Shown in pieces: positions 10,100-31,996 of a stretch of 40,031 nucleotides of DNA. The stretch spans positions 1 through 40,031 of the forward strand of contig JAPUER010000071.1 in assembly GCA_027492485.1 (NCBI GenBank). Direction: 5' to 3'. The translations under genes were made by a program, and so were the position numbers. This DNA comes from Betaproteobacteria bacterium. GTDB taxonomy: Bacteria; Pseudomonadota; Gammaproteobacteria; Burkholderiales; Casimicrobiaceae. The first letter of the stretch is position 1. Every line of letters begins with the position of its first letter. The notes under the pieces were generated by a model. That model was not told the origin of the DNA and did no database searches. It was given only the letters and a program-made list of their open reading frames with translations.

Positions 10100-12914
10100 G
10101 GCTGCTGATTCCCGCAAAAAACTGGTTCTCGTCGACGGTTCATCATACCTGTACCGTGCCTACCACGCGCTACCGGACTTGCGCACCAAAGCGGGTGAGC
10201 CGACCGGCGCGATCCGCGGCGTGCTGTCGATGCTGCGCCTGCTGGTGGCGAACGAGAAACCGGATTATTTCGCCGTGGTGTTCGACGCGCCCGGCAAGAC
10301 TTTCCGCGACGACTGGTACCCCGAATACAAGGCCAACCGCTCGCCGATGCCGGACGACATGCGGCCGCAAATCCAGCCGCTGTACGACATCATCAAGGCA
10401 CACGGCTGGTCGCTGATCGTGGAAAAGGGCGTGGAGGCCGACGACGTGATCGGCACGCTGGCAGAGCAGGCTGAGGCGGCCGGCATCGACTGCGTGATCT
10501 CCACCGGCGACAAGGATCTGGCGCAGCTCGTCACGCCGCACATCACGCTGAAAAACACCATGTCGAACGAGACGCTCGACGAAGCCGGCGTGATGGCCAA
10601 ATTCGGCGTCAAGCCGACGCAGATTCTCGACTACCTGACGCTGATCGGCGATACCGTCGACAACGTACCCGGCGTGCCGAAAGTCGGCCCGAAGACGGCC
10701 GTGAAATGGCTGGCCGAATACGCCTCGCTCGACAACGTCGTCGCCAACGCCGACAAGATCACCGGCGTCGTCGGCGACAACCTGCGCAATGCGCTGGACT
10801 GGTTGCCGAAGGGCAAGCAATTGCTGACGGTGAAGTGCGATCTGGACTTGCCCTACGCGCCCGCAACGCTAGCGCCGGCGCCGGCCGACACGACCGCGCT
10901 GCTCGGCTATTTCGAGCGCTTCGAGTTCAAGGGCATGGCGAATGAGTTGCGCGCCGCCAACCCACCAGCAACCGCATCGCTATTCGAACTCTCCCCCGGA
11001 GGGGGAGGGCAGGGTGGGGGTACGACGCCCTCCTCTTCGCTTAATGACGCCGCAAGCGCCGCCAGCCCCCACCCTGGCCCTCCCCCTTCGGGGGAGGGGA
11101 TGAAACGGCCGCGTCGCTACAAGACCATCTTCACCGACGCCGAGCTCGACGACGTGATTGCCGCGATCAACGTGGCGCCGCTCGTCTGCTTCGACACCGA
11201 GACCACGTCGCTGGAGCCGATGCTGGCGAAAGTGGTTGGCCTGTCGTTCGCGTGGACGCCGTTCGCGGCGGTCTACATCCCGCTGGCGCACCGCTATCCC
11301 GGCGCACCGGAGCAATTGCCGCGCGACGCGACGCTCGCCAAGCTCAAGCCGTGGTTTGAGGACGCAAGCAAACCGAAACTCGCACAGAACGCCAAGTACG
11401 ACGAGCATGTGCTGCTCAATCACGGCATCCAGGTGCGCGGCATCGCGCACGATACGCTGCTCGAAGACTACGTGCTGGAAAGCCACAAGCCGCACGACAT
11501 GGATTCGATGGCGCTGCGCTTTCTCGACGAGAAGACGATCAAGTTCGAGGACGTCGCCGGCAAGGGCGCCAAACAGATCGGCTTCGACGAGGTCGATATC
11601 GCGCGCGCCACCGAATACAGCGCCGAAGATGCCGACGTCACGCTGCGCTTGCACGATGCGATCTGGCCGCAGGTCGCGCAGGACGACAAGCTGCGTTTCG
11701 TCTATGAAAAGCTCGAATTGCCAACGCGCGAAGTGCTGGTGCGCATCGAACGCAATGGCGTGCTGATCGACGCGGCACTGCTGCAGAAGCAGTCGCACGA
11801 ACTCGGCCTGCAGGCGAACGAACTCGAACAGAAAGCCTACGAACTCGCGGGCCAGCCGTTCAATCTCGGCTCGCCGAAGCAGCTCGGCGAAATCCTGTTC
11901 GGCAAACTCGGCTTGCCGGTCAAGCGCAAGACGGCGACCGGCCAGCCCTCGACCGACGAGGAAGTGCTGACCGAGCTCGCCGACGACTTCCCGCTGCCGA
12001 AAGTCATTCTCGAACACCGCTCGCTGTCGAAACTCAAGAGCACCTACACCGACAAGCTGCCCAGGATGGTGAACCCGAACACCGGGCGCGTGCACACCAA
12101 TTACGGGCAGGCCACGGCCATCACCGGCCGGCTGTCAAGCAACGACCCGAACCTGCAGAACATCCCCGTGCGCACGCCGCAGGGCCGCGAGATCCGCAAG
12201 GCCTTCATCGCAGCGCCGGGCAACGTGATCGTGTCGGCCGACTACTCGCAGATCGAGCTGCGCATCATGGCGCACATCTCGCAGGACGCCTCGCTGCTCG
12301 ATGCATTCGCCAAGGGGCTCGACATCCACAAGGCCACGGCCGCCGACATCTTTGGCGTGCCGATCGCCGACATCACCAGCGAGCAGCGCCGCTACACCAA
12401 GGCAGTGAACTTCGGTCTGATCTACGGCATGGGCGCCTTCGGTCTGGCCTCGCAATTGGGCATCGAGCGCAACGCAGCGCAGCAGTTCATCGACAAGTAT
12501 TTCGCGCGTTATCCGGGCGTGGCGGAGTACATGCAGCAGACGCGCGAATCGGCGCGCGCCAAAGGCTATGTCGAGACCGTGTTCGGCCGTCGCCTGACGC
12601 TGACCGACATCAACGGCGGCAACGGCCCGCGCCGCGCCGGCGCCGAGCGCGCCGCGATCAACGCGCCGATGCAGGGCACGGCAGCAGACCTGATCAAGCT
12701 CGCGATGATCGCAGTGGACGACTGGCTGCATCGCGAAAAGCTCGCAACCAAACTCATCATGCAGGTGCACGACGAACTGGTGCTCGAAGTGCCGGCGGGC
12801 GAGCTGGACACCGTCAAACGCATCCTGCCCGAGAAGATGACCGGCGTCGCCAGCCTGCGCGTACCGCTGGTCGCCGAAGTCGGGGTTGGGCCGAACTGGG
12901 ACGAGGCGCATTGA
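10098..12914 (+). CDS. polA: DNA polymerase I
   Basis: 938 residues. The 5'-3' nuclease domain is residues 1-about 290 (LVLVDGSSYLYRAYHALP; ISTGDKDLAQLV). The proofreading domain is about 340-530 and looks active: FDTETTSLEP (around 365), QNAKYDEHVLL and the YSAEDADVTLRL segment. The polymerase domain runs to the end with motif A SADYSQIELR (around 714), motif B RRYTKAVNFGLIYG and motif C QVHDELVLEV (around 889). ATG 10098 matches the N-terminus of other PolA proteins. It fills gaps in excision repair and removes Okazaki primers. Oddity: residues about 298-334, in the linker between the 5' nuclease and proofreading domains, are encoded by an in-frame palindromic repeat (10991-11099) and read as Gly/Pro/Ser-rich sequence. 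Confidence 0.98.
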   Translation: MAADSRKKLVLVDGSSYLYRAYHALPDLRTKAGEPTGAIRGVLSMLRLLVANEKPDYFAVVFDAPGKTFRDDWYPEYKANRSPMPDDMRPQIQPLYDIIKAHGWSLIVEKGVEADDVIGTLAEQAEAAGIDCVISTGDKDLAQLVTPHITLKNTMSNETLDEAGVMAKFGVKPTQILDYLTLIGDTVDNVPGVPKVGPKTAVKWLAEYASLDNVVANADKITGVVGDNLRNALDWLPKGKQLLTVKCDLDLPYAPATLAPAPADTTALLGYFERFEFKGMANELRAANPPATASLFELSPGGGGQGGGTTPSSSLNDAASAASPHPGPPPSGEGMKRPRRYKTIFTDAELDDVIAAINVAPLVCFDTETTSLEPMLAKVVGLSFAWTPFAAVYIPLAHRYPGAPEQLPRDATLAKLKPWFEDASKPKLAQNAKYDEHVLLNHGIQVRGIAHDTLLEDYVLESHKPHDMDSMALRFLDEKTIKFEDVAGKGAKQIGFDEVDIARATEYSAEDADVTLRLHDAIWPQVAQDDKLRFVYEKLELPTREVLVRIERNGVLIDAALLQKQSHELGLQANELEQKAYELAGQPFNLGSPKQLGEILFGKLGLPVKRKTATGQPSTDEEVLTELADDFPLPKVILEHRSLSKLKSTYTDKLPRMVNPNTGRVHTNYGQATAITGRLSSNDPNLQNIPVRTPQGREIRKAFIAAPGNVIVSADYSQIELRIMAHISQDASLLDAFAKGLDIHKATAADIFGVPIADITSEQRRYTKAVNFGLIYGMGAFGLASQLGIERNAAQQFIDKYFARYPGVAEYMQQTRESARAKGYVETVFGRRLTLTDINGGNGPRRAGAERAAINAPMQGTAADLIKLAMIAVDDWLHREKLATKLIMQVHDELVLEVPAGELDTVKRILPEKMTGVASLRVPLVAEVGVGPNWDEAH
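10991..11099 (+). repeat. in-frame palindromic element in polA (E1)
   Basis: Left arm 10991-11020 (CTCCCCCGGAGGGGGAGGGC then AGGGTGGGGG) and right arm 11066-11099 (CCCCCACCCTGGCCC then TCCCCCTTCGGGGGAGGGG) are inverted copies. Each arm also contains its own small hairpin, CTCCCCC/GGGGGAG. The spacer is 45 bases. It is translated in frame as SPGGGGQGGG, a Ser/Ala-rich spacer, then SPHPGPPPSGEG, with no stop codon, between two PolA domains. Confidence 0.88.
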
Positions 12915-12953
12915 TCGCCAATCCCGACTCGGTCGCGATGCCGACGTGCGTTT

Positions 12954-13147
12954 TTTTTGACGCAGATTACGCAGATTCCGCAGATTTACGCAGATTGATG
13001 ATATACCGGTCGACACGCTCCGGTAGGAGCGGCCTTGGCCGCGAATCCATCGCGACACGCCGCCTTCGCGGGCGAGCCCGCTCCCACAAATCGGGGGTGC
13101 CACTTGTCGGCGTAAATCTGCGGAATCTGCGTAATCTGCGTCAAAAA
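12954..13147. repeat. perfect 38-bp inverted repeat enclosing REP copy 2
   Basis: Arms at 12954-12991 and 13110-13147 are perfect reverse complements over 38 bases and are themselves made of near-tandem ACGCAGATT units. The 118-base interior contains a second hairpin, REP copy 2. It fills the polA-helicase gap and starts 39 bases after the polA stop, so a transcript would fold into one long nested stem that could end polA transcription. Confidence 0.9.
13023..13087. repeat. REP-type hairpin, copy 2
   Basis: Left arm begins GTAGGAGCGGCCTTGGCC at 13023. The right arm ends GGCGAGCCCGCTCCCAC at 13087. The two are imperfect complements, since the right arm carries the GGGCTCGCCC variant core. It belongs to the same family as copies 1 and 3 and sits inside the 38-bp inverted repeat. 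Confidence 0.8.
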
Positions 13148-13179
13148 GTCATCACGGCGATTTAGAAACACAGTTCAGC

Positions 13180-16100
13180 ATGACGACATCACCCGCGTCC
13201 CGTGCCAAGCGCACCGCGCTCGACCTGCAAGCAGCCCGCGTCGACCTGGAACGGGAGTTCGGCGAACAGGGTTTCCGTCGTGGCGTCGACTACGTGACGG
13301 GCAAGCGCATCCGCATCGATTCCGCGCAGATCGACGACGAGCGCGTCTGGCATCTGCTGGCGACCGTGCGCGGCACCCAGAAGGAACCGTACACGACGTC
13401 GGTCGAAATGGAGTTCTTCGAATACGGCATCGACATCTTCGCGGCCGAATGCAGTTGCCCGGTGCACCTCAACTGCAAGCACGCCGCCGGCCTGGCGTAT
13501 CTGTGGGCGACCATGCAGCCGCAGCGCAACGGCACACTGAGCGGACAGCCGGCGCCGGCCATCGGCGGCGACGTGCCCGCAGCAGTCCGCACGGGGGGCG
13601 CGCCGGCCGCGACAACGTCGGCCGCCACCGTGCTGCGCACAGGCGTCGACGCCGACCTGTCGGCATGGTTGCGCTCAAGCTACCAACAGGCAAATCCGGC
13701 GACCGACGACGCCGTTCGGTCGGCGCCGACCAAGGCGGCACCGGAATTCGTCGCCTACCTGCTGACCGCACGCGGCGAGCTGACCATCGCCAAGGCGCGG
13801 CGACTGAAAAGCGGTGACGCAAAGCTCAACGTGCAGGCGGCCTCGCTCGCCTGGGTAACGCATGACCACGCCAGGCCCGTCTATGTGTCGCCGGAGGACG
13901 AACCCATCCTGCGCCTGCTCGCGGCGACGGTTGGTCTGTATTCGGCACGTCCCGTACTGCCGCTGCGCGGCGCGACCGGCAGCCAACTGCTCGACATGGC
14001 ACTGACGACGCGCCGGCTGTGGCTGGCGCCGGACGGCTACACCGACAGCGTGGTGCGCGCCCGTGCGTTGAAGTCGCCCGACGCGCCGACGCTGGCGCAA
14101 CCGCTGTCGCGCGGCGAAGCCATCAACGCAACGCTGTCGTGGGACGAGATCGATACGCCACAAGGAGCGCGAATTTTTCTGCGTGCCCGAACAACGGAGG
14201 AGGATGCAGCTCAACCCGGTCTGCCGATCATCGCGCTCGACCCGCCGCTGGTGATTGACCCCGCGCACCAGCAGTTGCGTCCCCTAAGCACGGCGGTGTC
14301 CGCCGCGACACTGGCACGCTTGATCACCTTGCCACCATTGAAAGCCGACGACGTCACGGCCTGGGCATTCGTCGACGACGCGCTGCGCGAACTGCCCGAC
14401 TTCGCCGCGATTCCGCGCTGTCCCACGGTCGTTGCCGGTACAACCGCCGACGGCCCGAACCAGGTCGAACCGCCGCTACCGGTGCCGCAGGCGTTGCTGC
14501 GCTTCGCCCTGATCGAGTTCGATGTCTCGGTCGGCTGGGGCCGCAATTCGAGCCTGCAGGGCCGCGTGTTTCCGGCCGTGCAGTTGCTGTTCCGCTACCC
14601 GGATGGTCGCCTGGTGCCGTTCCAGCGCAATGGCCTCGACCACGCCATCGAGCAGGAACGCGTCGGCCGCAACGTGGTGAGCCAGCGGCTGCGCAATGTG
14701 CGCGTCGAGTCGCAGTGGGAGATGCGCATGCCGCGGCTGCTCTACACCGCCGAGCGCGTCGAGCCGTCGCTGGCGTATGCGCGTGACGTCAAGGCGCTGC
14801 GCGAATCGCTGTGGGGGCTGCCCGATCACGACTGGTCGACTCGCGGACCGGCGGTGCTGGCCGACGCCCAGATGGCGGGCTTCGACATCGAGATCGAGGC
14901 AGGTTTTCCGATCTCGATGACCGACATCCCCGAGCCGACACTGGAGCTCGCACCGGGCACCGAAGTCGGCTGGTATCGGTTGTCGCTCGGGGTCGACATC
15001 GACGGCAAGCGCGTCGACCTGGCGCCTGCGCTGGCGAAGCTGATCGGTGCCCAGAAAGAGCCGGAGCAATGGGTCGAAGCATTGCCGACGGTCGAGCATG
15101 TGCTGCTCTCGGTGCCGGTGCCCGATCGCGTCAAGGCCGCGCAGGTAGTTCGTCTGAGCGGCGAACGCATCGCGACCATACTGAAGCCGGTGTTCGACTG
15201 GTTTCATGGCGGCGGCGTCGAACAGATCAGCGAGCTGCAGGCGGCGCTGCTGCCCGATCTGCCCAATTTCACGGTGCGCTATTTCGGTCGCGATCATCCG
15301 CGCTGGCTCGCGATGCGCGACAAGTTGCGCGATGGCGCCGAGCTGACCCCCGTGCTGGCGGCGCCGGGTTTCGAGGCAACGCTGCGGCCCTATCAGAACC
15401 ACGGCCTGTCGTGGCTCGCGCACCTCTACGAACTCGGCATGGGCGGCGTGCTCGCCGACGACATGGGGCTAGGCAAAACGGTGCAAACGCTGGCACATCT
15501 GCATCGGCTGCACAAACTCCCTCCCCCAGCGGGGGAGGGCGGGGGTGGGGGCACTTTGCCATTGCAAACATCGTCGCCCAGCCGCAATCCCTCACCCCCT
15601 CCCTCCCCCGCTGGCAGAGGGAGTTGCCTGCCCAGCCTGATCGTCGCCCCCACCTCGGTGCTCAGCAACTGGCAGCGCGAGGCGGAGCGCTTTGCGCCGA
15701 CGCTGAAGATTCATCGTCATCACGGCAGCGAACGCGCATCGAGCGCCGCTTCGTTCGCCAATGCCGACGTGGTGCTGACCAGTTATCCGCTGCTGCAACG
15801 CGACGAAAAACTGCTGACCGGCATCGACTGGAATGTGGTCGTATTCGACGAGGCGCAGACGCTAAAGAACGCGAAAGCGAAGACCTACGTGTCGGCGCAA
15901 TCGCTCTCCGCGCAGCAGCGGCTGGCGTTGACCGGCACGCCAATGGAAAACCACCTCGGCGAACTGTGGGCGATCTTCAACGTACTGATCCCCGGCCTGC
16001 TCGGCGCGCTGGACAGCTTCAACAGCCTGTTCCGGCACCCGATCGAGCAGCGCGCCGACTTCGAGCGCATGCAGCGGCTGAAGTCGCGCATCCGTGCCTT

Positions 16101-16893
16101 CATCCTGCGCCGCGGTCGCGACCAGGTGCTCGGCGAACTGCCGCCGAAGACCGAGTACACGCGCTGGATCGAGCTTGAACCGGCACAGGGCGATCTCTAC
16201 GAATCGCTGCGCACGGCGGTGCATGAGGACATCCGCCGCGTGATCGAAAAGAAAGGCCTCAAGCAGAGCACGGTGCACATTCTCGACGCCTTGCTGAAGC
16301 TGCGGCAGGCCTGCTGCGACCCGCGTCTGGTCAAGCTGCCCGGCCATTCCGCGCGGGCCATGAAGGCCGGCTCCGCCAAACTCGAATGGCTCGCCACCCA
16401 CGTGCCGGAGTTGCTCGAAGAAGGCCGCAAGGTGCTGATCTTCTCGCAGTTCACCAGCATGCTCGATCTGATCGGGCAGCAGCTCAACGAGCAGCAAATC
16501 CCGTTCGTGCTGCTGACGGGTGACACGGTCGACCGCGACACGCCGATCGACAATTTCCAGTCGGGCAAGGTGCCGGTGTTCCTGCTGAGCCTGAAAGCCG
16601 GCGGCGTCGGCCTCAACCTCACCGCCGCCGACACCGTGATCCACTACGACCCGTGGTGGAACCCCGCGGTCGAGGCGCAGGCCACGGCCCGCGCGCACCG
16701 CATGGGGCAGGACAAGCCGGTGATCGTCACCAAGCTGGTCGCCAAGGGCACGCTGGAAGAACACATGCTCAGCATGCTCGCCCGCAAGCGCGACCTCGCC
16801 ACCGCATTGCTCGATGGCGGCGGCAACGCCCTGACCGGATTGACGCTGGCGGATGTGGATGAGTTGTTGTCGCCGCTGGCGAGTACGGCGTAA
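13180..16893 (+). CDS. SWIM-domain SNF2/DEAD-box helicase-like ATPase
   Basis: 1237 residues. A SWIM zinc finger near residues 89-104 (CSCPVHLNCKH) is followed by a long middle region typical of bacterial SNF2 proteins. The SNF2 ATPase core has motif I DDMGLGKT (around 760), motif Ia LIVAPTSVLSNW, motif II DEAQ (around 890), motif III LTGTPMENHLGELW, and in the second RecA lobe LSLKAGGVGLNLT and ATARAHRMGQ. It is expected to move along DNA or remodel nucleoprotein; the cellular role of these bacterial proteins is poorly defined. ATG 13180 lies 32 bases after the long inverted repeat. Oddity: a palindromic repeat (15517-15623) inserts about 36 Pro/Gly-rich residues between motifs I and Ia of the ATPase lobe. 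Confidence 0.93.
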   Translation: MTTSPASRAKRTALDLQAARVDLEREFGEQGFRRGVDYVTGKRIRIDSAQIDDERVWHLLATVRGTQKEPYTTSVEMEFFEYGIDIFAAECSCPVHLNCKHAAGLAYLWATMQPQRNGTLSGQPAPAIGGDVPAAVRTGGAPAATTSAATVLRTGVDADLSAWLRSSYQQANPATDDAVRSAPTKAAPEFVAYLLTARGELTIAKARRLKSGDAKLNVQAASLAWVTHDHARPVYVSPEDEPILRLLAATVGLYSARPVLPLRGATGSQLLDMALTTRRLWLAPDGYTDSVVRARALKSPDAPTLAQPLSRGEAINATLSWDEIDTPQGARIFLRARTTEEDAAQPGLPIIALDPPLVIDPAHQQLRPLSTAVSAATLARLITLPPLKADDVTAWAFVDDALRELPDFAAIPRCPTVVAGTTADGPNQVEPPLPVPQALLRFALIEFDVSVGWGRNSSLQGRVFPAVQLLFRYPDGRLVPFQRNGLDHAIEQERVGRNVVSQRLRNVRVESQWEMRMPRLLYTAERVEPSLAYARDVKALRESLWGLPDHDWSTRGPAVLADAQMAGFDIEIEAGFPISMTDIPEPTLELAPGTEVGWYRLSLGVDIDGKRVDLAPALAKLIGAQKEPEQWVEALPTVEHVLLSVPVPDRVKAAQVVRLSGERIATILKPVFDWFHGGGVEQISELQAALLPDLPNFTVRYFGRDHPRWLAMRDKLRDGAELTPVLAAPGFEATLRPYQNHGLSWLAHLYELGMGGVLADDMGLGKTVQTLAHLHRLHKLPPPAGEGGGGGTLPLQTSSPSRNPSPPPSPAGRGSCLPSLIVAPTSVLSNWQREAERFAPTLKIHRHHGSERASSAASFANADVVLTSYPLLQRDEKLLTGIDWNVVVFDEAQTLKNAKAKTYVSAQSLSAQQRLALTGTPMENHLGELWAIFNVLIPGLLGALDSFNSLFRHPIEQRADFERMQRLKSRIRAFILRRGRDQVLGELPPKTEYTRWIELEPAQGDLYESLRTAVHEDIRRVIEKKGLKQSTVHILDALLKLRQACCDPRLVKLPGHSARAMKAGSAKLEWLATHVPELLEEGRKVLIFSQFTSMLDLIGQQLNEQQIPFVLLTGDTVDRDTPIDNFQSGKVPVFLLSLKAGGVGLNLTAADTVIHYDPWWNPAVEAQATARAHRMGQDKPVIVTKLVAKGTLEEHMLSMLARKRDLATALLDGGGNALTGLTLADVDELLSPLASTA
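15517..15623 (+). repeat. in-frame palindromic element in the SNF2 gene (E2)
   Basis: Left arm 15517-15551 and right arm 15589-15623 are inverted copies with a few mismatches. Each contains a CCCTCCCCC-AGC-GGGGGAGGG type hairpin, slightly decayed on the right. The 107-base element is translated as residues about 780-815, starting LPPPAGEGGGGG and ending PSPPPSPAGRG. The left half is read in a different frame from the polA and soeA copies, yet no stop arises. Confidence 0.85.
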
Positions 16894-16993
16894 CCCCCGG
16901 ACGCGCTTCGCTTCTCCGGGCTACGGCTCCTCCGTCCCTACGCCGGCACCGGCGCGCTGCGGCTCAGTTTTCATAATTCGCGGCACCCTTCTA

Positions 16994-17067
16994 CCGTTCA
17001 CCCTGAGCGTAGCGAAGGGTTTGACCCGCTATAGCATCAGACCCTTCGCTACGCTCAGGGCGAACGG
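16994..17067. repeat. dispersed hairpin repeat after the SNF2 gene
   Basis: Arms of 27 bases at 16994-17020 (CCGTTCACCCTGAGCGTAGC...) and 17041-17067 are reverse complements with one mismatch and a 20-base loop. Sequences of the type CCCTGAGCGTAGCGAAGGG are a familiar dispersed hairpin in GC-rich proteobacteria. It sits between two convergent genes and could serve as a terminator for both. Confidence 0.8.
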
Positions 17068-17113
17068 AGGTTCTGTCGCGAATTTGGGAAAGCTCAATAG
17101 AGCCTGCCTTATG

Positions 17114-18091: not shown

Positions 18092-18548
18092 TAGGACATT
18101 TTGGTGGTGGCGGGTTCATGGAGCCTGACGCCGCAGGTCCATTAAAAACCGACCTCATGGCGTAGCAGGCCACGCCTTGAAACGGAAATTTTTCCACACA
18201 TGTCTGAGTGGCTCGAATGAGCCATTGCTCTTGTGTTTCAGTCGATTTCATGCACACCAAGTCTTTGATGACGGCATACATTCCCTTGCCCAACTCTTCA
18301 TTTGTAGGGACGCGTCCGCTCATAGCGTACACATACCACTGATTCGCGTAGCCGACATAAAACCAGTCGTTGGACGGCTGCTGAGCCGTTATCACAACAG
18401 TTTGCAAAATTTGTGGGGCGTACCGTTGTTCGCAGTAACTGCCGGGGTCCCATTCTTCGAATTGCCCGCAGTTGTCTGCGAGAGTAACTCCTGTCGCGAA
18501 GACGCCGAAAAGCAATGTAATGACGTGACGTCGGAAATTGCTTGTCAT
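18084..18548 (-). CDS. small secreted cysteine-containing protein of unknown function
   Basis: 154 residues; no family recognised. The N-terminus has a signal peptide (RRHVITLLFGVFATGVTLA, cleavage likely before DNCGQF). The mature part is rich in aromatic residues (NDWFYVGYANQWYVYAM) and has six or more cysteines, ending with a Pro-rich tail (MNPPPPKCPIG). ATG 18548 is preceded by AGGGG on the minus strand. It is the first gene of a two-gene unit with the membrane-anchored protein. An AT-rich upstream region with a Fur-like box starts about 28 bases before the start codon. Composition differs from the rest of the window, which suggests horizontal transfer. Confidence 0.6.
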   Translation of the reverse strand: MTSNFRRHVITLLFGVFATGVTLADNCGQFEEWDPGSYCEQRYAPQILQTVVITAQQPSNDWFYVGYANQWYVYAMSGRVPTNEELGKGMYAVIKDLVCMKSTETQEQWLIRATQTCVEKFPFQGVACYAMRSVFNGPAASGSMNPPPPKCPIG

Positions 18549-18575
18549 TTTCGTTAACCCCTTTTATGTTATTAA

Positions 18576-18976: not shown

Positions 18977-19014
18977 CACCCTCTCCCTAGCCCTCTCCCC
19001 TCAAGGGAGAGGGA
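18977..19014 (+). repeat. half copy of the GC-rich palindromic element (intergenic)
   Basis: CACCCTCTCCCTAG followed by CCCTCTCCC-CTCAA-GGGAGAGGG (9-bp perfect stem at 18991-19013). This is the right half of the element seen in polA and soeA, in a CTCTCCC variant, here outside any gene. Confidence 0.65.
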
Positions 19015-24663: not shown

Positions 24664-24728
24664 GGGGCGGGGCGGCGTGCTCTCCTGAGCGACTTTTACC
24701 ACCACCGCTGCGCTCGTTCCGCCGCAAC

Positions 24729-25856
24729 CTACTTCTCGAAGAAGTCCTTCAGCTTGTCGAAGAAACCCTTCTGCCGGGGGCTTTGCTTGGCGGCATTCTT
24801 CTCGCGAATTTCTTCGAAGTCACGCAGCAGTTCCTTCTGCCGCGAGGTCAGGTTGACCGGCGTTTCGATCTGCACGTGGCAATAAAGATCGCCGGTCACG
24901 CTGCCGCGCACCGGGCGGATGCCCTTGTTCTTGAGCCGGAACACCTGGCCGGACTGCGTCTCCGACGGAATCTTCAGCAGCGCCTTGCCGTCCAGCGTCG
25001 GGATTTCCAGCTCGCCGCCGAGCGCTGCGGTGGCAAACGAAATCGGCATCTCGCAATGCAAATCCGCCGCGTCGCGCTGGAACACCGCATGCGGCTTGAT
25101 CTGCACCACGACATAGAGGTCGCCCGCCGGCCCGCCATTGGTGCCCGCTTCGCCCTCGCCCGAGAGGCGGATGCGGTCGTCGGTATCGACGCCGGCCGGA
25201 ATCTTCACCTCCAGCGTCTTCGACTTCTTGGTCACCCCGGCGCCGTGACAGGTCTTGCAGGGGTGCTTGATGATCTTGCCGCTGCCGTGACACTGCGGGC
25301 AGGTCTGCTGCACCGAGAAAAATCCCTGCGACACCCGCACTACGCCGGCGCCCTTGCAGGTCGGGCAGGTTTCGGGATCATGGCCCTTTTCGGCGCCGGT
25401 GCCGTGGCAGACCTCGCAGGTCTCGGTGGTCGGGATGCGCAGTTTGGTGGTGGTGCCGCGCGCCGCGTCCTCCAGCGTGATTTCGAGGTTGTAGCGCAGG
25501 TCGGAGCCGCGGAACGGCGAATCGGCGCGCTGCTGGCGGCCGCGACCGCCGCCGAAGATTTCGCCGAAGATGTCGCCAAAGGCATCGCCGAAATTGCCGC
25601 CGGCAAAGCCGCCGGCACCGGCCGCCTGCGGGTCGACGCCGGCGTGACCATATTGATCGTAGGCGGCGCGCTTCCTGGCGTCGGAGAGGACTTCGTAGGC
25701 GGCTTTGGCTTCCTTGAAACTTTCCTCGGCCACCTTGTCGCCCGGGTTACGGTCGGGGTGGAGCTTCATCGCGAGCTTGCGATAGGCTTTCTTGATGTCG
25801 TCCTCGGACGCCGATTTCTCCACCCCGAGGACGCTGTAGAAGTCTTTTTTTGCCAT
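24729..25856 (-). CDS. dnaJ: chaperone DnaJ (Hsp40)
   Basis: 375 residues, the usual length. J domain 1-70 with HPD at 33-35, needed to stimulate DnaK ATPase; a Gly/Phe-rich region ([23 protein letters not shown]); four CxxCxGxG zinc repeats ([32 protein letters not shown]); then the substrate-binding C-terminal domains. [12 protein letters not shown] at 25856 is the conserved start; a longer frame 15 residues upstream has no family support. It acts in the cytoplasm with DnaK and GrpE. Unusually for betaproteobacteria, dnaK and grpE are not next to it. The kinase gene follows 65 bases downstream on the same strand. Confidence 0.98.
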
Positions 25857-25973
25857 TCTTGTTCTGCACACGCAGCGTCCGGCGGCGAGACACGCCGGCA
25901 CGATGCCAAAACCATTGAGTTAGCGGGGGATTTGGGCGCGGATTGGCTAATTTCAAGCAGCCGGCGCCAGCCG

Positions 25974-26441
25974 CTAACGATCGGAGTCAGCCGCGAATAA
26001 ATAGCTGACGGTATCGAATTCTGCCGGAAGCGCCTGCCAGCGCTCGCGCATGCGCCGCATCGCGTCCGCCGGCACCGCGTGCACGTTCACCCACTCGCCA
26101 ACGCACTCGACCACGCAGAACGGCTTGCCGGCGAGCCTTGCGGCGCCTACAGCGGCCGCCATTTCCCATAGCCGGACGTGGGTATTGGCCACCACCACCC
26201 GCTCGCCCGCCTGCAGTGCGGTCAGCGCATCGCGCACCACAATCGCATGGGCGTCGGCCAGCCGGGCGGGGTCGAAGTGGTAGGCGCCATCAACCATGAA
26301 ATGCTGGTCGGTCTCGAGATGGCGGAAGCCGTGCCCGGCGGCCAGCCGCTGCGCCAGCGTGCTCTTGCCGCTGCCGGGCAGGCCACGCAGCAGCACGCAG
26401 TCGAACGCGAGCAAGGGTGTCAGGGTAGCGAGGCGCTGCAA
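25974..26441 (-). CDS. small P-loop kinase (AAA_33/zeta-toxin-like fold)
   Basis: 155 residues. A Walker A motif GLPGSGKST (20-28) is followed by HLETDQHFMVDGAYHFDPARL, which resembles the second acidic motif of the polynucleotide kinase/NEDD4BP2-like ATP-binding family, and by VVVANTHVRLWEM, the Walker B-like strand with substrate contacts. It would phosphorylate a small substrate or RNA/DNA end; the substrate is unknown. The frame begins at a TTG (26439-26441), which touches the T-tract of the preceding terminator. A TTG at 26414 or the GTG just before LLRGLPG are alternative starts. No partner antitoxin is next to it, so a toxin role is not supported. Confidence 0.7.
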   Translation of the reverse strand: MQRLATLTPLLAFDCVLLRGLPGSGKSTLAQRLAAGHGFRHLETDQHFMVDGAYHFDPARLADAHAIVVRDALTALQAGERVVVANTHVRLWEMAAAVGAARLAGKPFCVVECVGEWVNVHAVPADAMRRMRERWQALPAEFDTVSYLFAADSDR

Positions 26442-26468
26442 ACGAAAACGGCTCCGGAAACGGAGCCG
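26441..26468 (-). terminator. intrinsic terminator of the DUF3034 gene
   Basis: On the minus strand CGGCTCCG-TTTC-CGGAGCCG is an 8-bp GC stem with a 4-base loop, followed by TTTTCGTTT, 30 bases after the stop of the DUF3034-type gene. Confidence 0.88.
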
Positions 26469-26497
26469 CTATTGTCGCTGGGGACCGATTGCCGGCG

Positions 26498-27436
26498 CTA
26501 GAAACCCACCTGCAGCGACAGGTAAGCGCCGGTCTGTCGGCGGCCGGCGGTCAGCGCGCCAACGATCTGGCCGAGATCGACGTAGGCGGCCGTCACCGAG
26601 ACGTTTTTGCTCGGGAACCAGGCGAGGAACACATCCCAGGCCGCGCCTTCGCTCAGGTTCAGCGCGGCGTTGGACAGGTTGCCGCGCTTGGTTCGCACCT
26701 CGACGCCGCCGACCAGATCGCGCCGGAACAGGTAGGCCAGCGAGCCTTCGAATTCCGGCCGGTAGCGCCTGCCGTCCGGCCCCTCGAAGCCGAGCAACCC
26801 GAACTGGTTGCCCCGGGTGAAGCGCACGGTGCCGTTGACCAGCAGGCTTTTGTCGAGATAGAGCTTGCTGGCGGCGACGTAGAAATCGGTGCCACGGTTT
26901 CTGATGTTCGACCCCAGCGCGCCGTTGAGGAAGGGGATCACCGTGTCGTCCTTGTTGTCCTTCACCTGCACGCCGACGGCGATCTGCGGCAACAGCCGGT
27001 CCTGATCGTAGACGGCGTCGCCGATCACGCGCAGCTTGGCGCCGAACACATCCTGCTTCAATTTGTAGTCGCGCAGCGCCGGGCTGATGGCGGTGAGCAC
27101 AGACTTCGTATTGAACTCCTGCCGCGCATACGAAAGCTCGACGCGGTCGTAGAGGCCGACGGCCACACCGCCGGTGGCGAGCGCGTAGTCGCGCGTCTTG
27201 ACCCCGGTGAGATGCGCATTGGCGCCGATCTGGTTCTCGGTGCCGTAGCCGGTGATCAGCGCCCAGGTGCCGAGGCCGCCGCCGCCGGCGCCCTCCACTG
27301 TCGACACGCCGCCGGTTGCGCGCAGCTTGCCGCTGATGTCCTGCGCATTGGCGGCTGCGCTGACGATCAGTGCAACGCCGGTCAGCAGCGCTGCCGCCAG
27401 CGCGTGTGTCCTGAAGGGGGTGGGTTTCTGCTGCAT
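26498..27436 (-). CDS. DUF3034-type outer-membrane beta-barrel protein
   Basis: 312 residues. A signal peptide (MQQKPTPFRTHALAAALL, then VSAAANAQ) is followed by a chain of alternating amphipathic strands and a C-terminal Phe (SLQVGF), as in outer-membrane barrels recognised by BamA. GKLRATGGVSTVEGAGGGGLGTWALITGYG at the mature N-terminus and GLYDRVELSYARQEF are what I associate with the DUF3034 family. The role is unknown; a porin-like or surface channel is likely. It has its own intrinsic terminator. Upstream lies dyad element B, 136 bases from the start codon and 138 bases from the divergent soeA start. Confidence 0.78.
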   Translation of the reverse strand: MQQKPTPFRTHALAAALLTGVALIVSAAANAQDISGKLRATGGVSTVEGAGGGGLGTWALITGYGTENQIGANAHLTGVKTRDYALATGGVAVGLYDRVELSYARQEFNTKSVLTAISPALRDYKLKQDVFGAKLRVIGDAVYDQDRLLPQIAVGVQVKDNKDDTVIPFLNGALGSNIRNRGTDFYVAASKLYLDKSLLVNGTVRFTRGNQFGLLGFEGPDGRRYRPEFEGSLAYLFRRDLVGGVEVRTKRGNLSNAALNLSEGAAWDVFLAWFPSKNVSVTAAYVDLGQIVGALTAGRRQTGAYLSLQVGF

Positions 27437-27819
27437 CGCTGTGTCGTTGTTGCGTTGGTGGGAGCGCGTCGATGGCCTTGCGTCTCGACGGGTTCTGCGC
27501 TGTACGCAGTATCTTTGGTGGCAGTTTTTTGCGGCAGTGCTGCGCGCACCGCCGGCGTCGTACCAATTCAGCTTTCTTGGTAAAACGGCATTACAAAAAG
27601 GTTTATGGCGTGTTTTTCGACAAGTCGACTTGTCGTTTTTTCAGCACATACTCCTTTCTGCATATTCGTTTCGACCGGAAAGTTGTATGACGGGCTGTCG
27701 CAGTTTTCATTCGGAGAAAAAACGCCGCGCCAAATGTAATTCGGAACTCAGGGTTTCGGGAATTCCGGCTTCTTACCAACTCATATGGATGACTTGGGCA
27801 CAATAGCGTCCATCGTGCG
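27437..27819. other. 383-base divergent regulatory region
   Basis: No gene is seen between the DUF3034-type gene and soeA, which are read away from each other. The AT-rich centre is dyad element B. On the soeA side the weakly promoter-like ACTTGGGCACAATAG (27792-27806) lies just before the GTG start cluster. I could not find a clear -35/-10 pair for either gene. Confidence 0.5.
27572..27682. repeat. 111-bp dyad-symmetric intergenic element, copy B
   Basis: Starts CTTTCTTGGTAAAACGGC and ends CGTTTCGACCGGAAAG, with GTCGAC at 27624-27629, half a base from the centre. The inner palindrome is extended: GACAAGTCGACTTGTC pairs perfectly over 16 bases. It sits midway between two divergent genes. Confidence 0.75.
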
Positions 27820-30800
27820 GTGGTGGCGTGTGGTTCGACCAGCACCGCCGCGCCACTGCCCTGTTTTGACTTTCGCCCGCCCGTTTTGCCTGCACCCCCT
27901 CCCCCCGCCGCGACGCCCGCCCCGCGCTCCCGCGTCCCGCGCACGCCGGCCGCCGAGCGGCCGATCCGCTTCGAGGATCGCAGCCGGCAACAGGTGCATC
28001 ACACCACCTGCTACATGTGCGCCTGCCGCTGCGGCATCAAGGTGACGACCGAGGAGCGCCCCGGGGAACCCGGCCAGCCCGGCAAGCCGCATGTCCGCTT
28101 CATTCAGGGCAACCCGAATCATCTGGTGAATCAGGGCGTGCTCTGCGCCAAGGGCAGCGCCGGCATCATGAAGCAATATTCGCGGGCGAAGCTGCAACAG
28201 CCGCTGATTCGCCGCCCCGGCAGCGAGCGCGGCGACGGCCTCTACGACCCGATCTCGTGGGACGACGCGCTCGACCTGCTGAGCAAGCGTCTTGCGCACA
28301 TCCGCGCCACCGATCCGAAGAAGCTCGCCTTCTTCACCGGCCGCGATCAGATGCAGGCGCTGACCGGCCTCTGGGCGCAGCAGTTCGGCACACCGAACTG
28401 GGCCGCGCACGGCGGTTTCTGTTCGGTCAACATGGCCGCCGCGGGGCTCTATTCCATCGGCTATTCGTTCTGGGAATTCGGCTCGCCGGACTGGGACCGC
28501 GCCAGGTATTTCGTGCTCTGGGGCGTGGCCGAGGATCATTCGTCGAACCCGATCAAGATCGGCCTCGACAAGCTGAAGACGCGCGGCGCCAAGTTCGTCA
28601 GCGTCAACCCGGTGCGCACCGGCTACAGCGCCATCGCGGATGAATGGGTGCCGATCCGCCCCGGCACCGACGGCCTGCTCGCGCTCGCCATCGTGCGCGA
28701 GTTGCTGCTCAACGACTGGATCGATCACGAGTATCTGGTGCGCTACACCAACGCGCCCTGGCTGGTGATCGACGCGCCCGGCACGTCGCAGGATGGGCTG
28801 TTTCTGCGCGACGACCAAGGCAAGCCGCTGGTCTGGGACCAGCACACGCAGTCGGCGCAGCGCATGGAGAAAGGCGTGGCGCCGACACTGGTGTGGAAAG
28901 GCGTTGCCCCCTCCCCCAGCGGGGGAGGGTCGGGGTGGGGGAAGGCGGCTACCTCGCACCCCCCCGAACCGGAACTCCGATCCCAATCCCAGCCCGCCGC
29001 TACCAGCCCCCACCCTGGCCCTCCCCCGCTGGGGGAGGGAATGAAGGTGCGAACGGTGTTTTCGCTGGTTGTCGATCGCTATACGACGGCGGAATACGCC
29101 GCCGACACTGTCGCCCCGCAATGCGGCGTCCCGGCCGGGCAAATCCGTCGCCTTGCGCGCGAGATGGCGCACGTCGCGTTCAACGAGACGATCGAGCTGG
29201 CCTGCCAGTGGACCGACATCTACGGCAACGTGCACGACAAGGTGGTGGGCCGGCCCGTTGCCTTCTACGCGATGCGCGGCATCAGTGCGCATGCCAACGG
29301 TTTCCAAACCTGCCGCGCGCTGCACCTGATCCAGATGCTGCTCGGCGCGTCGGACGGTCCCGGCAACTTCCGTTCGAAGGCGCCGTTCCCGCGTCCCATC
29401 CCGCCAGCGCAACTGCCCGAGAACGACCCCGGCATCATCAACGCGCCCGACACCGCGCTGTCGAAAACGCCGCTCGGCTTTCCGACGCGGCCCGAGGAGC
29501 TGGCGCTCGATGCGCACGGCAATCCGTTGCGGCTCGACAAAGCCTACTCGTGGGAGGCGCCGCTTGCGTCGCACGGCATGATGCACGCGGTGATCAAGAA
29601 CGCCGTCGAGGGCGACCCATACCCGATCGACACGCTGATCCTGTTCATGGCCAATATGGCGTGGAACAGCGCGATGAACACCGCCGGCACGCAGGCGATG
29701 TTGAAGGCAAAGGACGAGGCGGGTAATCACAAGATTCCCTTCCTCGTCGTCGCCGATGCGTTCGACAGCGAGACCACGCGCTTCGCGGACCTGGTGCTAC
29801 CGGACACCACCTATCTCGAGCGCTACGACGCCATCAGTTTTCTTGATCGCCCAATCAGCGAGCCCGACGCGGCAGCGGACTCGATCCGGCACCCGGTGCT
29901 GCCGCTCGACCGCGACGTGCGGCCGTGGCAGGACGTGCTGGTGGAGCTCGCCGGCCGGCTCAAGTTTCCGGCCTTCGTGAAGGCCGATGGCTCGCGCAAG
30001 TTCGCCGGCTACACCGATTTCATCGTCAACTACGAACGCGCGCCGGGCATCGGTTTTCTCGCCGGCTTTCGTGGTACCAATGGCGAAAAGTCCTTCCGCG
30101 GCGAGCCCAATCCCGGGCAGTGGAAAGCGTATATCGACGCCCAGAGTTTCTTCGCCCATCACTGGCCCGAGAATCAGCGCTGGATGCGCGCCGTCAATCG
30201 CGACTATCTGCAGGCGGCGGCCGATGCCGCTTTCATCCCGAAAGCCGAGCCGATCATCGCGCAGCTTTACTCGGAGCCGCTGCAAAAATTCCGGCTCGCC
30301 GGCGCCGGACTGTACGACGGCCCGCAGCCCACGCGCGCCATCGACAAGGCACGGCTCACACAAAATTTCGATCCGCTACCGGTCTGGCATTCCCCCTTCA
30401 CCATCGCCGCCGGCCTTGTCCCCTCCCCCAGCGGGGGAGGGTCAGGGAGGGGGAACGTGGCGATCGAACACACGTCGGCGGCTCACGCCAACAACCCCCA
30501 CCCCAACCCTCCCCCGCTGGGGGAGGGAGTCAGTGTCAACTCCCAGCTCAGCCCTCCCCGACTGGGCGAGGGGGTCAATGCTTTTCCGCTGCACGCCATC
30601 ACTCAGCGCCCGATGATGATGTATCACTCGTGGGATTCGCAGAACGCGTGGCTGCGGCAGATCGTCGGCCAGAACTACCTCTACGTGAACTCGGCGATGG
30701 CCGCTTCACTCGGCCTCGCCGATTTCGACTGGGTGTGGGTGGAATCGGCGCACGGCCGCATTCGCTGCCAGATGAAAACGATGGAAGGCGTCGAGGCGAA

Positions 30801-31053
30801 CACGGTATGGACGTGGAACGCCATTGGCAAGATGAGCGAAGCCTGGGGGCTGGAACGCGATGCCTCCGAGGCCACGGTGGGCTTTCTGCTCAATCACCTG
30901 ATCGCCGAGAGCGTGCGCGCTGCGAACGGCGAGCGGCTGTCGAACAGCGACCCGATCACCGGCCAGGCCGCATGGTACGACCTGCGCGTGCGCATCCGCA
31001 AGGCGGAGGAATCGGGCGTGTGGCCGAAGCTTGAATTTGGAGCACAGCGATGA
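27820..31053 (+). CDS. soeA: molybdopterin oxidoreductase, SoeA-like sulfite dehydrogenase catalytic subunit
   Basis: About 1077 residues from GTG 27820; the start is uncertain because the first 55 residues are Pro/Ala-rich and only GTG/TTG codons are available. No Tat signal is seen, so it is probably cytoplasmic. The N-terminal [4Fe-4S] motif is Cys64-x2-Cys67-x3-Cys71...Cys109. Cys201 in HGGFCSVNMAAAG aligns by context with the molybdenum-ligand Cys of NapA/PsrA-type enzymes; there is no selenocysteine codon. With the iron-sulfur subunit and a DmsC-like anchor downstream and a SulP transporter after that, cytoplasmic sulfite:quinone oxidoreductase (SoeABC) is the best call; thiosulfate/polysulfide reductase is the alternative. 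Two palindromic elements (28907-29040, 30421-30575) are translated in frame inside it. Confidence 0.68.
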   Translation: MVACGSTSTAAPLPCFDFRPPVLPAPPPPAATPAPRSRVPRTPAAERPIRFEDRSRQQVHHTTCYMCACRCGIKVTTEERPGEPGQPGKPHVRFIQGNPNHLVNQGVLCAKGSAGIMKQYSRAKLQQPLIRRPGSERGDGLYDPISWDDALDLLSKRLAHIRATDPKKLAFFTGRDQMQALTGLWAQQFGTPNWAAHGGFCSVNMAAAGLYSIGYSFWEFGSPDWDRARYFVLWGVAEDHSSNPIKIGLDKLKTRGAKFVSVNPVRTGYSAIADEWVPIRPGTDGLLALAIVRELLLNDWIDHEYLVRYTNAPWLVIDAPGTSQDGLFLRDDQGKPLVWDQHTQSAQRMEKGVAPTLVWKGVAPSPSGGGSGWGKAATSHPPEPELRSQSQPAATSPHPGPPPLGEGMKVRTVFSLVVDRYTTAEYAADTVAPQCGVPAGQIRRLAREMAHVAFNETIELACQWTDIYGNVHDKVVGRPVAFYAMRGISAHANGFQTCRALHLIQMLLGASDGPGNFRSKAPFPRPIPPAQLPENDPGIINAPDTALSKTPLGFPTRPEELALDAHGNPLRLDKAYSWEAPLASHGMMHAVIKNAVEGDPYPIDTLILFMANMAWNSAMNTAGTQAMLKAKDEAGNHKIPFLVVADAFDSETTRFADLVLPDTTYLERYDAISFLDRPISEPDAAADSIRHPVLPLDRDVRPWQDVLVELAGRLKFPAFVKADGSRKFAGYTDFIVNYERAPGIGFLAGFRGTNGEKSFRGEPNPGQWKAYIDAQSFFAHHWPENQRWMRAVNRDYLQAAADAAFIPKAEPIIAQLYSEPLQKFRLAGAGLYDGPQPTRAIDKARLTQNFDPLPVWHSPFTIAAGLVPSPSGGGSGRGNVAIEHTSAAHANNPHPNPPPLGEGVSVNSQLSPPRLGEGVNAFPLHAITQRPMMMYHSWDSQNAWLRQIVGQNYLYVNSAMAASLGLADFDWVWVESAHGRIRCQMKTMEGVEANTVWTWNAIGKMSEAWGLERDASEATVGFLLNHLIAESVRAANGERLSNSDPITGQAAWYDLRVRIRKAEESGVWPKLEFGAQR
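28907..29040 (+). repeat. in-frame palindromic element in soeA (E3)
   Basis: Left arm 28907-28941 with CCCTCCCCC-AGC-GGGGGAGGG then TCGGGGTGGGGG; right arm 29007-29040 with CCCCCACCCTGGCC then CTCCCCCGCTGGGGGAGGG. The arms are inverted copies with a 65-base spacer. It is translated as residues about 363-407, from APSPSGGGSGWG to SPHPGPPPLGEG, the same protein reading as the polA copy. Confidence 0.88.
30421..30575 (+). repeat. in-frame palindromic element in soeA with an extra hairpin (E4)
   Basis: Left arm 30421-30453 and right arm 30495-30527 are inverted copies of the CCCTCCCCC/GGGGGAGGG plan. A third, decayed hairpin (CCCTCCCCG-ACT-GGGCGAGGGGG) follows to 30575, as if a further half unit had been added. 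It is translated as residues about 868-919: PSPSGGGSGRG, NPHPNPPPLGEG, then a repeat-like SPPRLGEG. Confidence 0.85.
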
Positions 31054-31064
31054 CACCCTCGCCG

Positions 31065-31143
31065 GTGGGAGCGGCCTTGGCCGCGAAAAACGCGCCGGGG
31101 GAAAGCACGCGGACTGAGCATTCGCGGCCAAGGCCGCTCCCAC
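31065..31143. repeat. REP-type hairpin, copy 3 (inside the soe operon)
   Basis: Perfect 23-base inverted repeat at 31065-31087 (beginning GTGGGAGCGGCCTTGGCC) and 31121-31143, with a 33-base loop. It starts 11 bases after the soeA stop and ends 31 bases before soeB, so it falls between two genes that should be made in fixed ratio. It may act as an attenuator or protect the soeA message from 3' decay. Confidence 0.9.
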
Positions 31144-31174
31144 ACAAGCACTCGCAATACGGGAGGCACCTGCG

Positions 31175-31996
31175 ATGCGCCTAGGCCTCGCCATCGACCT
31201 CGACACCTGCGTCGGTTGCCACGCGTGCGCGGTCGCCTGCAAGGAATGGAACGGCGAATCGCTGATGGGCGGCGCGCCCGACTACGACGCCTGGGGCAAG
31301 GCGCCCAGCGGCACCTGGTACAACCGCATCCGCCACTACGAGATCGAAGGCGATCCGGCGTGGTCGCCGCATCGCTGCGGTACTCAGCATCCTTCCTCCT
31401 CAACCGAACCCCATCCCCACCCTAACCCTCCCCTTGAAAGGGAGGGAAACGCGGTGTCGGCACGGGAAGTGGATTGGCAGCCGCTATCGAAGACAGTGAA
31501 TGTTCCGATGAGCTGCATGCATTGCGAAGAGGCGCACTGCGTGACGGTGTGCCCGACCGGCGCCAGCTACAAGCGTGCCGAGGACGGCATCGTGCTGGTT
31601 GACCCGGAGCGCTGCATGGGCTGCAACTACTGCTCGTGGGCCTGCCCGTATGGCGCCCGCGAGCTGGATCAGGACAAAGGCGTGATGAAGAAATGCACGC
31701 TCTGCGTCGACCGCATCTACGACGAACGGCTGCCGGCCGCCGAGCGGCAACCGGCCTGCGTGCTCGCCTGCCCGGCCCATGCGCGGCACTTCGGCGACTA
31801 TGACGATCCGGCGTCGAATGTCTCGACACTCGCAGCAGCGCGCGGTCGCCAGGAGATGCTGCCGGCGCTTGGTTATCGTCCAACCAACGCCTACCTGTCG
31901 CCGCGCAAGCCGGCGGAAGTGGCGCCTACGCTGCCGGTGCGGCAGGGTTTGAGCGACCAGGCGCGGGCGTTCGTGAACCGCTTGATCAATCTGTGA
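31175..31996 (+). CDS. soeB: four-cluster ferredoxin subunit, SoeB-like
   Basis: 273 residues of the DmsB/PsrB/SoeB family, carrying electrons between the molybdenum subunit and the membrane anchor. First cluster motif Cys12-x2-Cys15-x2-Cys18-x3-Cys22; further cysteine groups at SCMHCEEAHCVTVCP (113-127), RCMGCNYCSWACP (146-158) and KKCTLCVDR (173-180) with PACVLACP (193-200), enough for four [4Fe-4S] clusters. GGGAGG (31161-31166) supports ATG 31175. Residues 79-92 (PHPHPNPPLEREGN) come from a half palindromic element in the loop between clusters. The stop overlaps the soeC start in GTGA (31993-31996), so the two are translationally coupled. Confidence 0.88.
   Translation: MRLGLAIDLDTCVGCHACAVACKEWNGESLMGGAPDYDAWGKAPSGTWYNRIRHYEIEGDPAWSPHRCGTQHPSSSTEPHPHPNPPLEREGNAVSAREVDWQPLSKTVNVPMSCMHCEEAHCVTVCPTGASYKRAEDGIVLVDPERCMGCNYCSWACPYGARELDQDKGVMKKCTLCVDRIYDERLPAAERQPACVLACPAHARHFGDYDDPASNVSTLAAARGRQEMLPALGYRPTNAYLSPRKPAEVAPTLPVRQGLSDQARAFVNRLINL
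31415..31447 (+). repeat. half palindromic element in soeB (E5)
   Basis: CCCCACCCTAACCCTCCCCTTGAAAGGGAGGG-type sequence (split here as CCCCACCCTAA and CCCTCCC-CTTGAAA-GGGAGGG) is the right half of the element in polA and soeA, in a shorter-stem variant. It is read in frame as HPNPPLEREG. No matching left half is visible upstream. Confidence 0.75.

What the first reader, a model, noticed from the sequence alone, without database searches (positions are those of the whole stretch)
10991..31447. A palindromic repeat family inserted in frame in several genes
Five sites inside four genes (polA, SNF2 helicase, soeA twice, soeB) and one intergenic half copy share one plan: an inverted pair of arms, each made of a small CCCTCCCCC/GGGGGAGGG hairpin plus a GGGTGGGGG segment. 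All genic copies are free of stop codons and are read as SPSGGGSG...SPHPGPPPLGEG-type linkers, while known catalytic motifs remain intact. Rickettsia and Wolbachia palindromic elements behave like this; I know of no described equivalent in a GC-rich betaproteobacterium. It amounts to a mobile DNA repeat that makes protein sequence.
Basis: partly seen in the sequence, partly recalled or inferred. Interest (0 to 1): 0.92.

Follow-up and report, generated by a model that had tools for sequence, protein, structure and literature searches.

The report
Nuclease-linked DNA repeats inside essential genes
Short G-rich palindromic DNA repeats sit in frame inside working core genes of this uncultured bacterium, and the same kind of repeat flanks genes of an uncharacterised nuclease (DUF559) in many bacteria, which points to an unrecognised kind of mobile element that can also be studied in laboratory E. 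coli.

Summary
The repeats are real and in frame. At most sites relatives lack them or carry other palindromes; PolA's loop is long everywhere, so no clean gap there. The arm is the known TM intrastrand-triplex motif, and intragenic REPs are published, also in a betaproteobacterium (Thauera): the novelty claim as first made is too strong.

The new part is the partner. Arms of this family flank a DUF559 nuclease gene in the same genome. DUF559 domains have hairpins within 200 bp on both sides in 18 of 22 genus and 20 of 30 class loci, against 4 of 400 genus control windows; the third strand points to the gene in 68 of 79 arms. Whole DUF559 cassettes are read in frame inside dnaG, mnmG, lipB, hyuB, hsdS, hsdM and a bioF-like gene. 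The nuclease is under purifying selection (pN/pS 0.09-0.20); arm-encoded peptides are near neutral with low synonymous change: DNA, not peptide, seems constrained. In E. coli K-12 published TM number 9 lies 167 bp downstream of its DUF559 gene ycjD.

Most likely TM repeats are small mobile elements served by DUF559 nucleases. Movement itself is inferred.

The parts
10017..12914 (+). polA (DNA polymerase I), host gene, open through the insert
   Evidence: Pfam DNA_pol_A, 5_3_exonuc, DNA_pol_A_exo1; pN/pS 0.127 against G005
10989..11020 (+). left TM arm of the polA pair (hairpin + third strand GGGTGGGGG)
11066..11098 (-). right (inverted) TM arm of the polA pair
13180..16893 (+). SNF2-family helicase, host gene
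   Evidence: Pfam SNF2-rel_dom, Helicase_C; loop 43 residues here, 10-18 in 7 of 11 relatives, 22-58 in the other 4
15517..15551 (+). left TM arm of the SNF2 pair
15589..15625 (-). right, partly decayed inverted arm of the SNF2 pair
   Evidence: (I10)
18979..19013 (-). intergenic single TM arm, family 3 type (CCCTCTCCCTTGAGGGGAGAGGG)
27820..31053 (+). soeA-like molybdopterin oxidoreductase, host gene with two inserts
   Evidence: AlphaFold model: pLDDT under 50 at model residues 334-371 and 830-885, the two inserts
28907..28941 (+). left TM arm, soeA insert 1
29007..29039 (-). right TM arm, soeA insert 1
30421..30453 (+). left TM arm, soeA insert 2
30495..30529 (-). right TM arm, soeA insert 2
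30531..30578 (-). third, degenerate arm copy behind soeA insert 2
   Evidence: family D1, 65%
31175..31996 (+). soeB-like 4Fe-4S protein, host gene
   Evidence: Pfam Fer4_11 and others; loop 44 residues here, 15-20 in 9 of 10 relatives, another half copy in G002
31410..31446 (+). half copy of a family-2 element (third strand + hairpin) inside soeB
   Evidence: hairpin one base off that at the DUF559 gene G000:C79:124525-124836

Best explanation
The inserts are short non-autonomous copies of a mobile DNA element. Its ends are inverted intrastrand-triplex (TM) repeats, and its autonomous form carries a DUF559 nuclease gene between such ends. The nuclease most likely recognises or cuts the folded TM arms, perhaps when they are single-stranded in replication, and break repair copies arm pairs or whole cassettes to new places. 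Copies that land in frame in flexible loops survive because the G/C-rich arms rarely hold stop codons in any frame. The peptide they encode is tolerated, not selected. Shown here: the arms, their pairing and mirror structure, the flanking of DUF559 genes, in-frame residence in intact genes, selection on the nuclease, and low synonymous change in the arms. Inferred: that DUF559 drives the movement, and how.
For: Family-1 arms (the polA/SNF2/soeA type) at G000:C66:5325-5364, 5747-5784 and 5815-5855 flank an intact DUF559 gene at C66:5381-5701. The four DUF559 genes of this genome lie beside four different arm families; two recur in the window's genes and a third between its genes. A stem of 8 or more within 200 bp on both sides: genus 18 of 22, class 20 of 30, control 4 of 400. 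Pyrimidine/purine stems only: 15 of 22, 19 of 30, class control 0 of 509. Third strand better on the gene side in 31 of 36 genus and 37 of 43 class arms. Of 77 asymmetric stems the third strand fits the mirror better in 40, the direct copy in 7, tie 30. pN/pS: DUF559 domain 0.09-0.20, linkers 0.62-1.09 with dS 0.24-0.54 against 1.0 or more in host stretches. F, R, D-F, E-x-D and H are invariant in 65 DUF559 domains. In dnaG, G001 holds arm-arm-DUF559-arm where G015 holds only the arm pair. E. coli K-12: TM at 1351205-1351239, ycjD at 1351407-1351760. TM-type hairpins on both sides of DUF559 also in Sphingomonas, two Sinorhizobium and one Deinococcus record.
Against: No movement was observed, and no target-site duplication is seen (mean shared word 3.2 against 2.95 with shuffled partners, 15 pairs). 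Not every DUF559 gene has such arms: 1 of 22 genus and 6 of 30 class loci had no Y/R hairpin on either side; 5 and 3 arms pointed outwards, 3 tied. E. coli K-12 has 23 published TMs and I saw one DUF559 gene. DUF559 proteins can have another role: Caulobacter VsrA is linked to a cytosine methyltransferase and DNA damage (PMC12907096, passages). Low dS in the arms could also come from gene conversion among copies. The PolA site has no clean gap. The DUF559 structure model failed (mean pLDDT 47).
Confidence: 0.68

Rival explanations
1. REPINs of the usual kind: the repeats are moved by a Y1 (RAYT) transposase.
For: Inverted doublets with a spacer are the REPIN plan (PMC3116915, abstract); three Y1_Tnp matches exist in the own genome.
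Against: None of the three Y1_Tnp loci shows a CCCTCYCCC-type hairpin in its 1.9-3.4 kb. I saw no GTAG head at the arm ends (by eye). Matching arms lie at DUF559 genes instead.
Confidence: 0.08
2. The cassettes are homing endonucleases: DUF559 cuts the empty host gene at one site and is copied in; pairs are remnants.
For: Same loops filled in several species (mnmG G002 and G007; dnaG G000, G001 and G005; lipB G004, G006 and G011; hyuB G004 and G013). The three dnaG cassettes group together, as do the two of mnmG. Strong selection on the nuclease.
Against: The hyuB cassette of G004 groups with one in a HODM gene of G016 at a well supported fork, so a lineage is not tied to one host gene; the lipB cassettes are unresolved in that tree. 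Free-standing copies are common. The loops are also variable when empty.
Confidence: 0.2
3. Passive link: TM repeats arise or persist by replication errors, and DUF559 is a repair nuclease that happens to be kept beside them.
For: TM motifs are tied to instability without a known enzyme in E. coli (PMC4666352, section 20 part 1); DUF559/VsrA acts in DNA damage.
Against: Inverted pairs with inward third strands around the gene, arm families of the genome matching the local cassette and whole cassettes inside unrelated genes look like a mobile unit.
Confidence: 0.17
4. The inserts are skipped in translation (bypassing elements) or are assembly errors.
For: GC-rich hairpins in genes; most genomes here are draft bins.
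Against: The filled copies that I aligned keep the frame, which bypassing would not need; only open frames were picked for those alignments, so broken copies would have been missed there. The same loops are filled in several independent assemblies, including the single-contig genome G005.
Confidence: 0.03

Closest known systems
TM / PIT intrastrand-triplex repeats (TMECO; Holder et al. 2015, PMC4666352)
   Same: Same arm plan: pyrimidine stem, loop, purine stem, mostly 3 nt, mirror third strand; inverted pairs of two arms also occur in E. coli.
   Different: Treated there in non-coding DNA, with no enzyme and no in-frame genic copies in what I read (12 passages, section 15, section 20 part 1).
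REPIN / RAYT system (Bertels and Rainey 2011, PMC3116915, abstract)
   Same: Inverted doublets with spacer; several families per genome, each near its own enzyme gene.
   Different: The enzyme is a DUF559 Vsr-like nuclease, not a Y1 transposase; arms are triplex motifs.
Intragenic GTAG/CGTC REPs and Rickettsia palindromic elements (Di Nocera et al. 2013, PMC3733652, passages and section 15; review PMC10969869, passages)
   Same: In-frame palindromes in core genes, many in DNA synthesis and repair, uvrA and DNA polymerase I among them; different REPs at about the same recB site in two Xanthomonas.
   Different: Other repeat families; no nuclease-bearing cassette in frame in what I read.
Homing endonucleases and inteins (recalled)
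   Same: A nuclease domain read in frame inside core genes such as dnaG.
   Different: No intein or Hint family in the Pfam listing of 8 in-frame ORFs; the domain seems to stay as an insert.

Membership tests
TM intrastrand-triplex repeat | third strand that mirrors the purine stem about 3 nt after the hairpin | tested here: met
   Inside match 8/9 or better in 31 of 36 genus and 39 of 43 class arms, offset mostly 2-3, up to 30 allowed; mirror better than direct in 40 of 77 asymmetric stems, 7 opposite, 30 ties
TM intrastrand-triplex repeat | forms a triplex in vitro | not testable with these tools
   needs CD or NMR on this G-richer variant
REPIN / RAYT | inverted doublet with spacer | tested here: met
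REPIN / RAYT | cognate RAYT (Y1) gene flanked by the same repeats | tested here: not met
   three Y1_Tnp loci, none with such hairpins
Rickettsia palindromic element-like | in-frame residence in intact genes | tested here: met
   13 of 29 own-genome places, plus soeB
Rickettsia palindromic element-like | one conserved encoded peptide | tested here: not met
   all three frames used (by eye); linkers near neutral at protein level
DUF559 (PF04480) | Pfam match over the curated cut-off | tested here: met
   C66 protein E 2.5e-35, C79 protein E 7.4e-37; YcjD E 1.4e-49
DUF559 as active nuclease | conserved catalytic-type residues, cleavage | tested here: inconclusive
   D-F, E-x-D and H invariant in 65 domains; cleavage not testable; PDB 3hrl 'Endonuclease-Like Protein' E 1.7e-21
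intein / homing endonuclease | splicing (Hint) domain | tested here: not met
   no such family at E 1e-5 in 8 in-frame host ORFs
mobile element | target-site duplication | tested here: not met
   15 pairs

The most novel reading that the evidence does not exclude
TM triplex repeats and DUF559 nucleases form one mobile-element class, spread over Proteobacteria and at least one Deinococcus. In it a small PD-(D/E)XK-type nuclease takes the place of a transposase and reads a DNA triplex as its end signal. Its cassettes can live as in-frame, unspliced nuclease domains inside working core proteins such as primase DnaG.
Probability: 0.5. Interest if true: 0.93.

Novelty: new variant of a known kind. 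Interest (0 to 1): 0.85.

Why it matters
TM repeats have been known in hundreds of genomes without an enzyme or a settled function. The DUF559 link offers a candidate enzyme and makes the question testable in E. coli K-12, where TM number 9 lies beside ycjD. It would add a nuclease-based counterpart to RAYT/REPIN, suggest a biological reader of DNA triplexes, and show that core proteins such as DnaG, MnmG and LipB tolerate nuclease insertions. It also warns annotators that SPSGGG- and PPPLGEG-type stretches in proteins can be DNA-repeat footprints.

Tried and rejected
RAYT as mover: three Y1_Tnp loci, no matching hairpins. Target-site duplication: none. Selected peptide: rejected by frame use and pN/pS. 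Known RNA family in the window: none at gathering score. Anti-phage defence: only weak PADLOC DpdF matches (E about 1e-4) for two DUF559 proteins, none for YcjD. Broken genes: six partial ORFs beside elements showed no split gene; five had no Pfam match at all, so this is a weak test. The built-in control (pattern read backwards) is useless because the motif is a mirror repeat; its counts were not used. The SNF2 row is a regex failure and was dropped. The single-sequence DUF559 model failed.

Rows left out: of 25 DUF559 matches in genus genomes 22 were tested for flanks; L254, L258 and L260 (partial or weak, at contig ends) were not. Of the class matches only the 30 fetched loci, the best of their genomes, were tested. 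The Pfam control did not report E. coli although YcjD matches DUF559 at E 1.4e-49, so genome tallies are lower bounds; one search also holds weak matches in 1500-2000-aa ORFs that are probably other proteins. The tree used 65 of 70 distinct domains, those of 85 residues or more. In one search I entered 7 places for contig C66; by the grouping it is 6, recomputed.

Own-genome census, 29 places grouped by me: 13 in frame in a recognised gene, 4 near the N-terminus and uncertain (ureD, tauE, aspA-like, pbpC start), 12 with no gene recognised, of which 2 are the arms of the C66 cassette. Filled or empty calls in relatives were made by eye on printed alignments, helped by loop lengths.
Full report
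WHAT IS THERE. The window is contig C71 of a 4.12-Mb draft genome in 83 contigs. Inverted palindromic pairs lie in polA, SNF2 and twice in soeA; a half copy lies in soeB and another between genes at 18979-19013. All genic copies are open in frame.

INSERTIONS. In SoeA, 12 genomes of the genus align; by eye site 1 is filled in 7 (G004 only in part) and site 2 in 5, by different palindromes, and three family outgroups are empty. Site 1 of G002 looks like a CGTC-type REP, so unrelated repeats share the loop. The SNF2 loop has 43 residues here, 10-18 in 7 of 11 relatives, 22 and 26 in G015 and G001, 42 (alanine-rich) in G013 and 58 (another repeat) in G004. The SoeB loop has 44 here, 15-20 in 9 of 10 relatives, and another half copy in G002. 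MnmG is filled by eye in 6 of 15 genomes. PolA holds palindrome-type peptides by eye in 6 of 16, but its loop is 34-52 residues long in the others too, so there is no clean gap. Hosts are under purifying selection between G000 and G005: pN/pS 0.127 PolA, 0.216 SNF2, 0.186 SoeA, 0.149 SoeB, 0.136 MnmG, 0.192 DnaX. In the SoeA model the only long internal stretches with pLDDT under 50 are the two inserts.

GENOME CENSUS. Blast with one insert gave 89 matches, which I grouped into 29 places. Thirteen are read in frame inside recognised genes: dnaX, pbpC, uvrA twice, a DUF2126 gene, an S9 peptidase, mnmG, an acyl-CoA dehydrogenase, earP, polA, SNF2 and soeA twice. Four are near N-termini and uncertain; twelve have no recognised gene. 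All three element frames are used (by eye). Core lengths are 0, 1 or 2 modulo 3, with 3-6 of 6 frames open in genic and other copies (SNF2 row dropped).

THE ARM. It has the plan of the TM intrastrand-triplex motif: pyrimidine stem, loop, purine stem, usually three bases, then a third strand mirroring the purine stem (PMC4666352; passages, section 15 and section 20 part 1). Of 77 asymmetric stems at DUF559 genes the third strand fits the mirror better in 40 and the direct copy in 7, with 30 ties.

THE NUCLEASE. MnmG of G002 and G007 holds, at the loop filled by a pair in the window's genome, a whole DUF559 domain between such arms. Pfam searches found DUF559 in 13 of 17 genus genomes, the own included, and 4 of 19 others, and in 77 of 229 class genomes. 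Family-1 arms flank the DUF559 gene at G000:C66:5381-5701. Hairpins on both sides: 18 of 22 genus loci (22 of 25 matches tested), 20 of the 30 class loci fetched, 4 of 400 genus control windows. With pyrimidine/purine stems only: 15 of 22, 19 of 30, and 0 of 509 class control windows. The third strand is better on the gene side in 31 of 36 and 37 of 43 arms. Against: 1 of 22 and 6 of 30 loci had no such hairpin on either side (some have hairpins that this filter drops), and 5 and 3 arms pointed outwards, 3 tied.

CASSETTES IN FRAME. DUF559 is read in frame inside dnaG (G000, G005, G001), mnmG (G002, G007), lipB (G004, G011 and, cut by a contig end, G006), hyuB (G013, G004) and a HODM gene (G016). 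In other families it is inside hsdS, hsdM, a DNA methylase and a bioF-like aminotransferase (hsdS of L331 and L332, and the name bioF, by motif recall). In dnaG, G001 has arm-arm-DUF559-arm and G015 only the arm pair at the same place, a natural pair of long and short forms. In the tree of 65 domains the dnaG cassettes group together, and hyuB of G004 groups with the HODM cassette at a well supported fork; lipB is unresolved. The tree has few columns and 31 of 62 forks open.

SELECTION. In dnaG and mnmG cassettes pN/pS is 0.09-0.20 for DUF559 and 0.62-1.09 for arm-encoded linkers of 35-54 codons. Linker dS is 0.24-0.54 against 1.0 or more in host stretches, whose pN/pS is 0.06-0.46. My reading is constraint on DNA and little on peptide; conversion among copies could also lower dS.

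E. COLI. In K-12 MG1655 a TM lies at 1351205-1351239, as in the published table (1351239-1351204), and ycjD, a DUF559 gene, at 1351407-1351760. In strain C4 two TMs lie at and behind its 3' end. A 491-bp ycjD stretch has near matches in 3365 of 5426 E. coli genomes. Of ten plasmid-collection records fetched, TM-like hairpins lie on both sides of DUF559 in Sphingomonas, two Sinorhizobium and Deinococcus, and on one side in two Azospirillum and Shinella; the Picosynechococcus hairpins are of another type; the two E. coli records show a right arm by eye.

MECHANISM. Best reading: DUF559 acts on folded TM arms and repair spreads pairs and cassettes, with selection keeping those in frame in loops. 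Movement, cleavage and triplex reading are inferred. No target-site duplication was found.

LITERATURE. Intragenic REPs are known (PMC3733652, passages and section 15), as are REPINs (PMC3116915, abstract) and RPEs (PMC10969869, passages). Twelve held papers name DUF559 as a whole word (listing); I read passages of one, on Caulobacter VsrA (PMC12907096). The listings of searches, which are capped, showed none that ties DUF559 to palindromic repeats; the library lacks most subscription journals and all preprints.

Noticed in passing
window 12954-12994 and 13107-13147: 41-nt inverted repeat, 98% complementary, in the polA-SNF2 intergenic region; different from the TM arms.
   Followed up: no
window 13013-13045, 31055-31087 and 31123-31141: A second repeat of the GGGAGCGGCCTTGGCCGCG kind between polA and SNF2 and, as an inverted pair, between soeA and soeB.
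   Followed up: no
window 16994-17024 and 17037-17067: 31-nt inverted repeat with CCCTGAGCGTAGCGAAGGG behind the SNF2 gene.
   Followed up: no
L072 (G002 soeA, site 1): The soeA loop of G002 carries what looks like a CGTC-type REP in frame, so unrelated repeat families use the same loop.
   Followed up: partly
G000 contigs C71 and C66: Family-1-like copies look clustered: 4 places in C71 (0.28 expected) and 6 in C66 (1.13 expected; 5 if its cassette counts once); unexplained.
   Followed up: partly
L353 (Sphingomonas parapaucimobilis NZ_CP155749.1): A DUF559 gene with double palindromes on both sides lies directly upstream of dnaG, the gene that carries a cassette in frame in the window's genome.
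   Followed up: no
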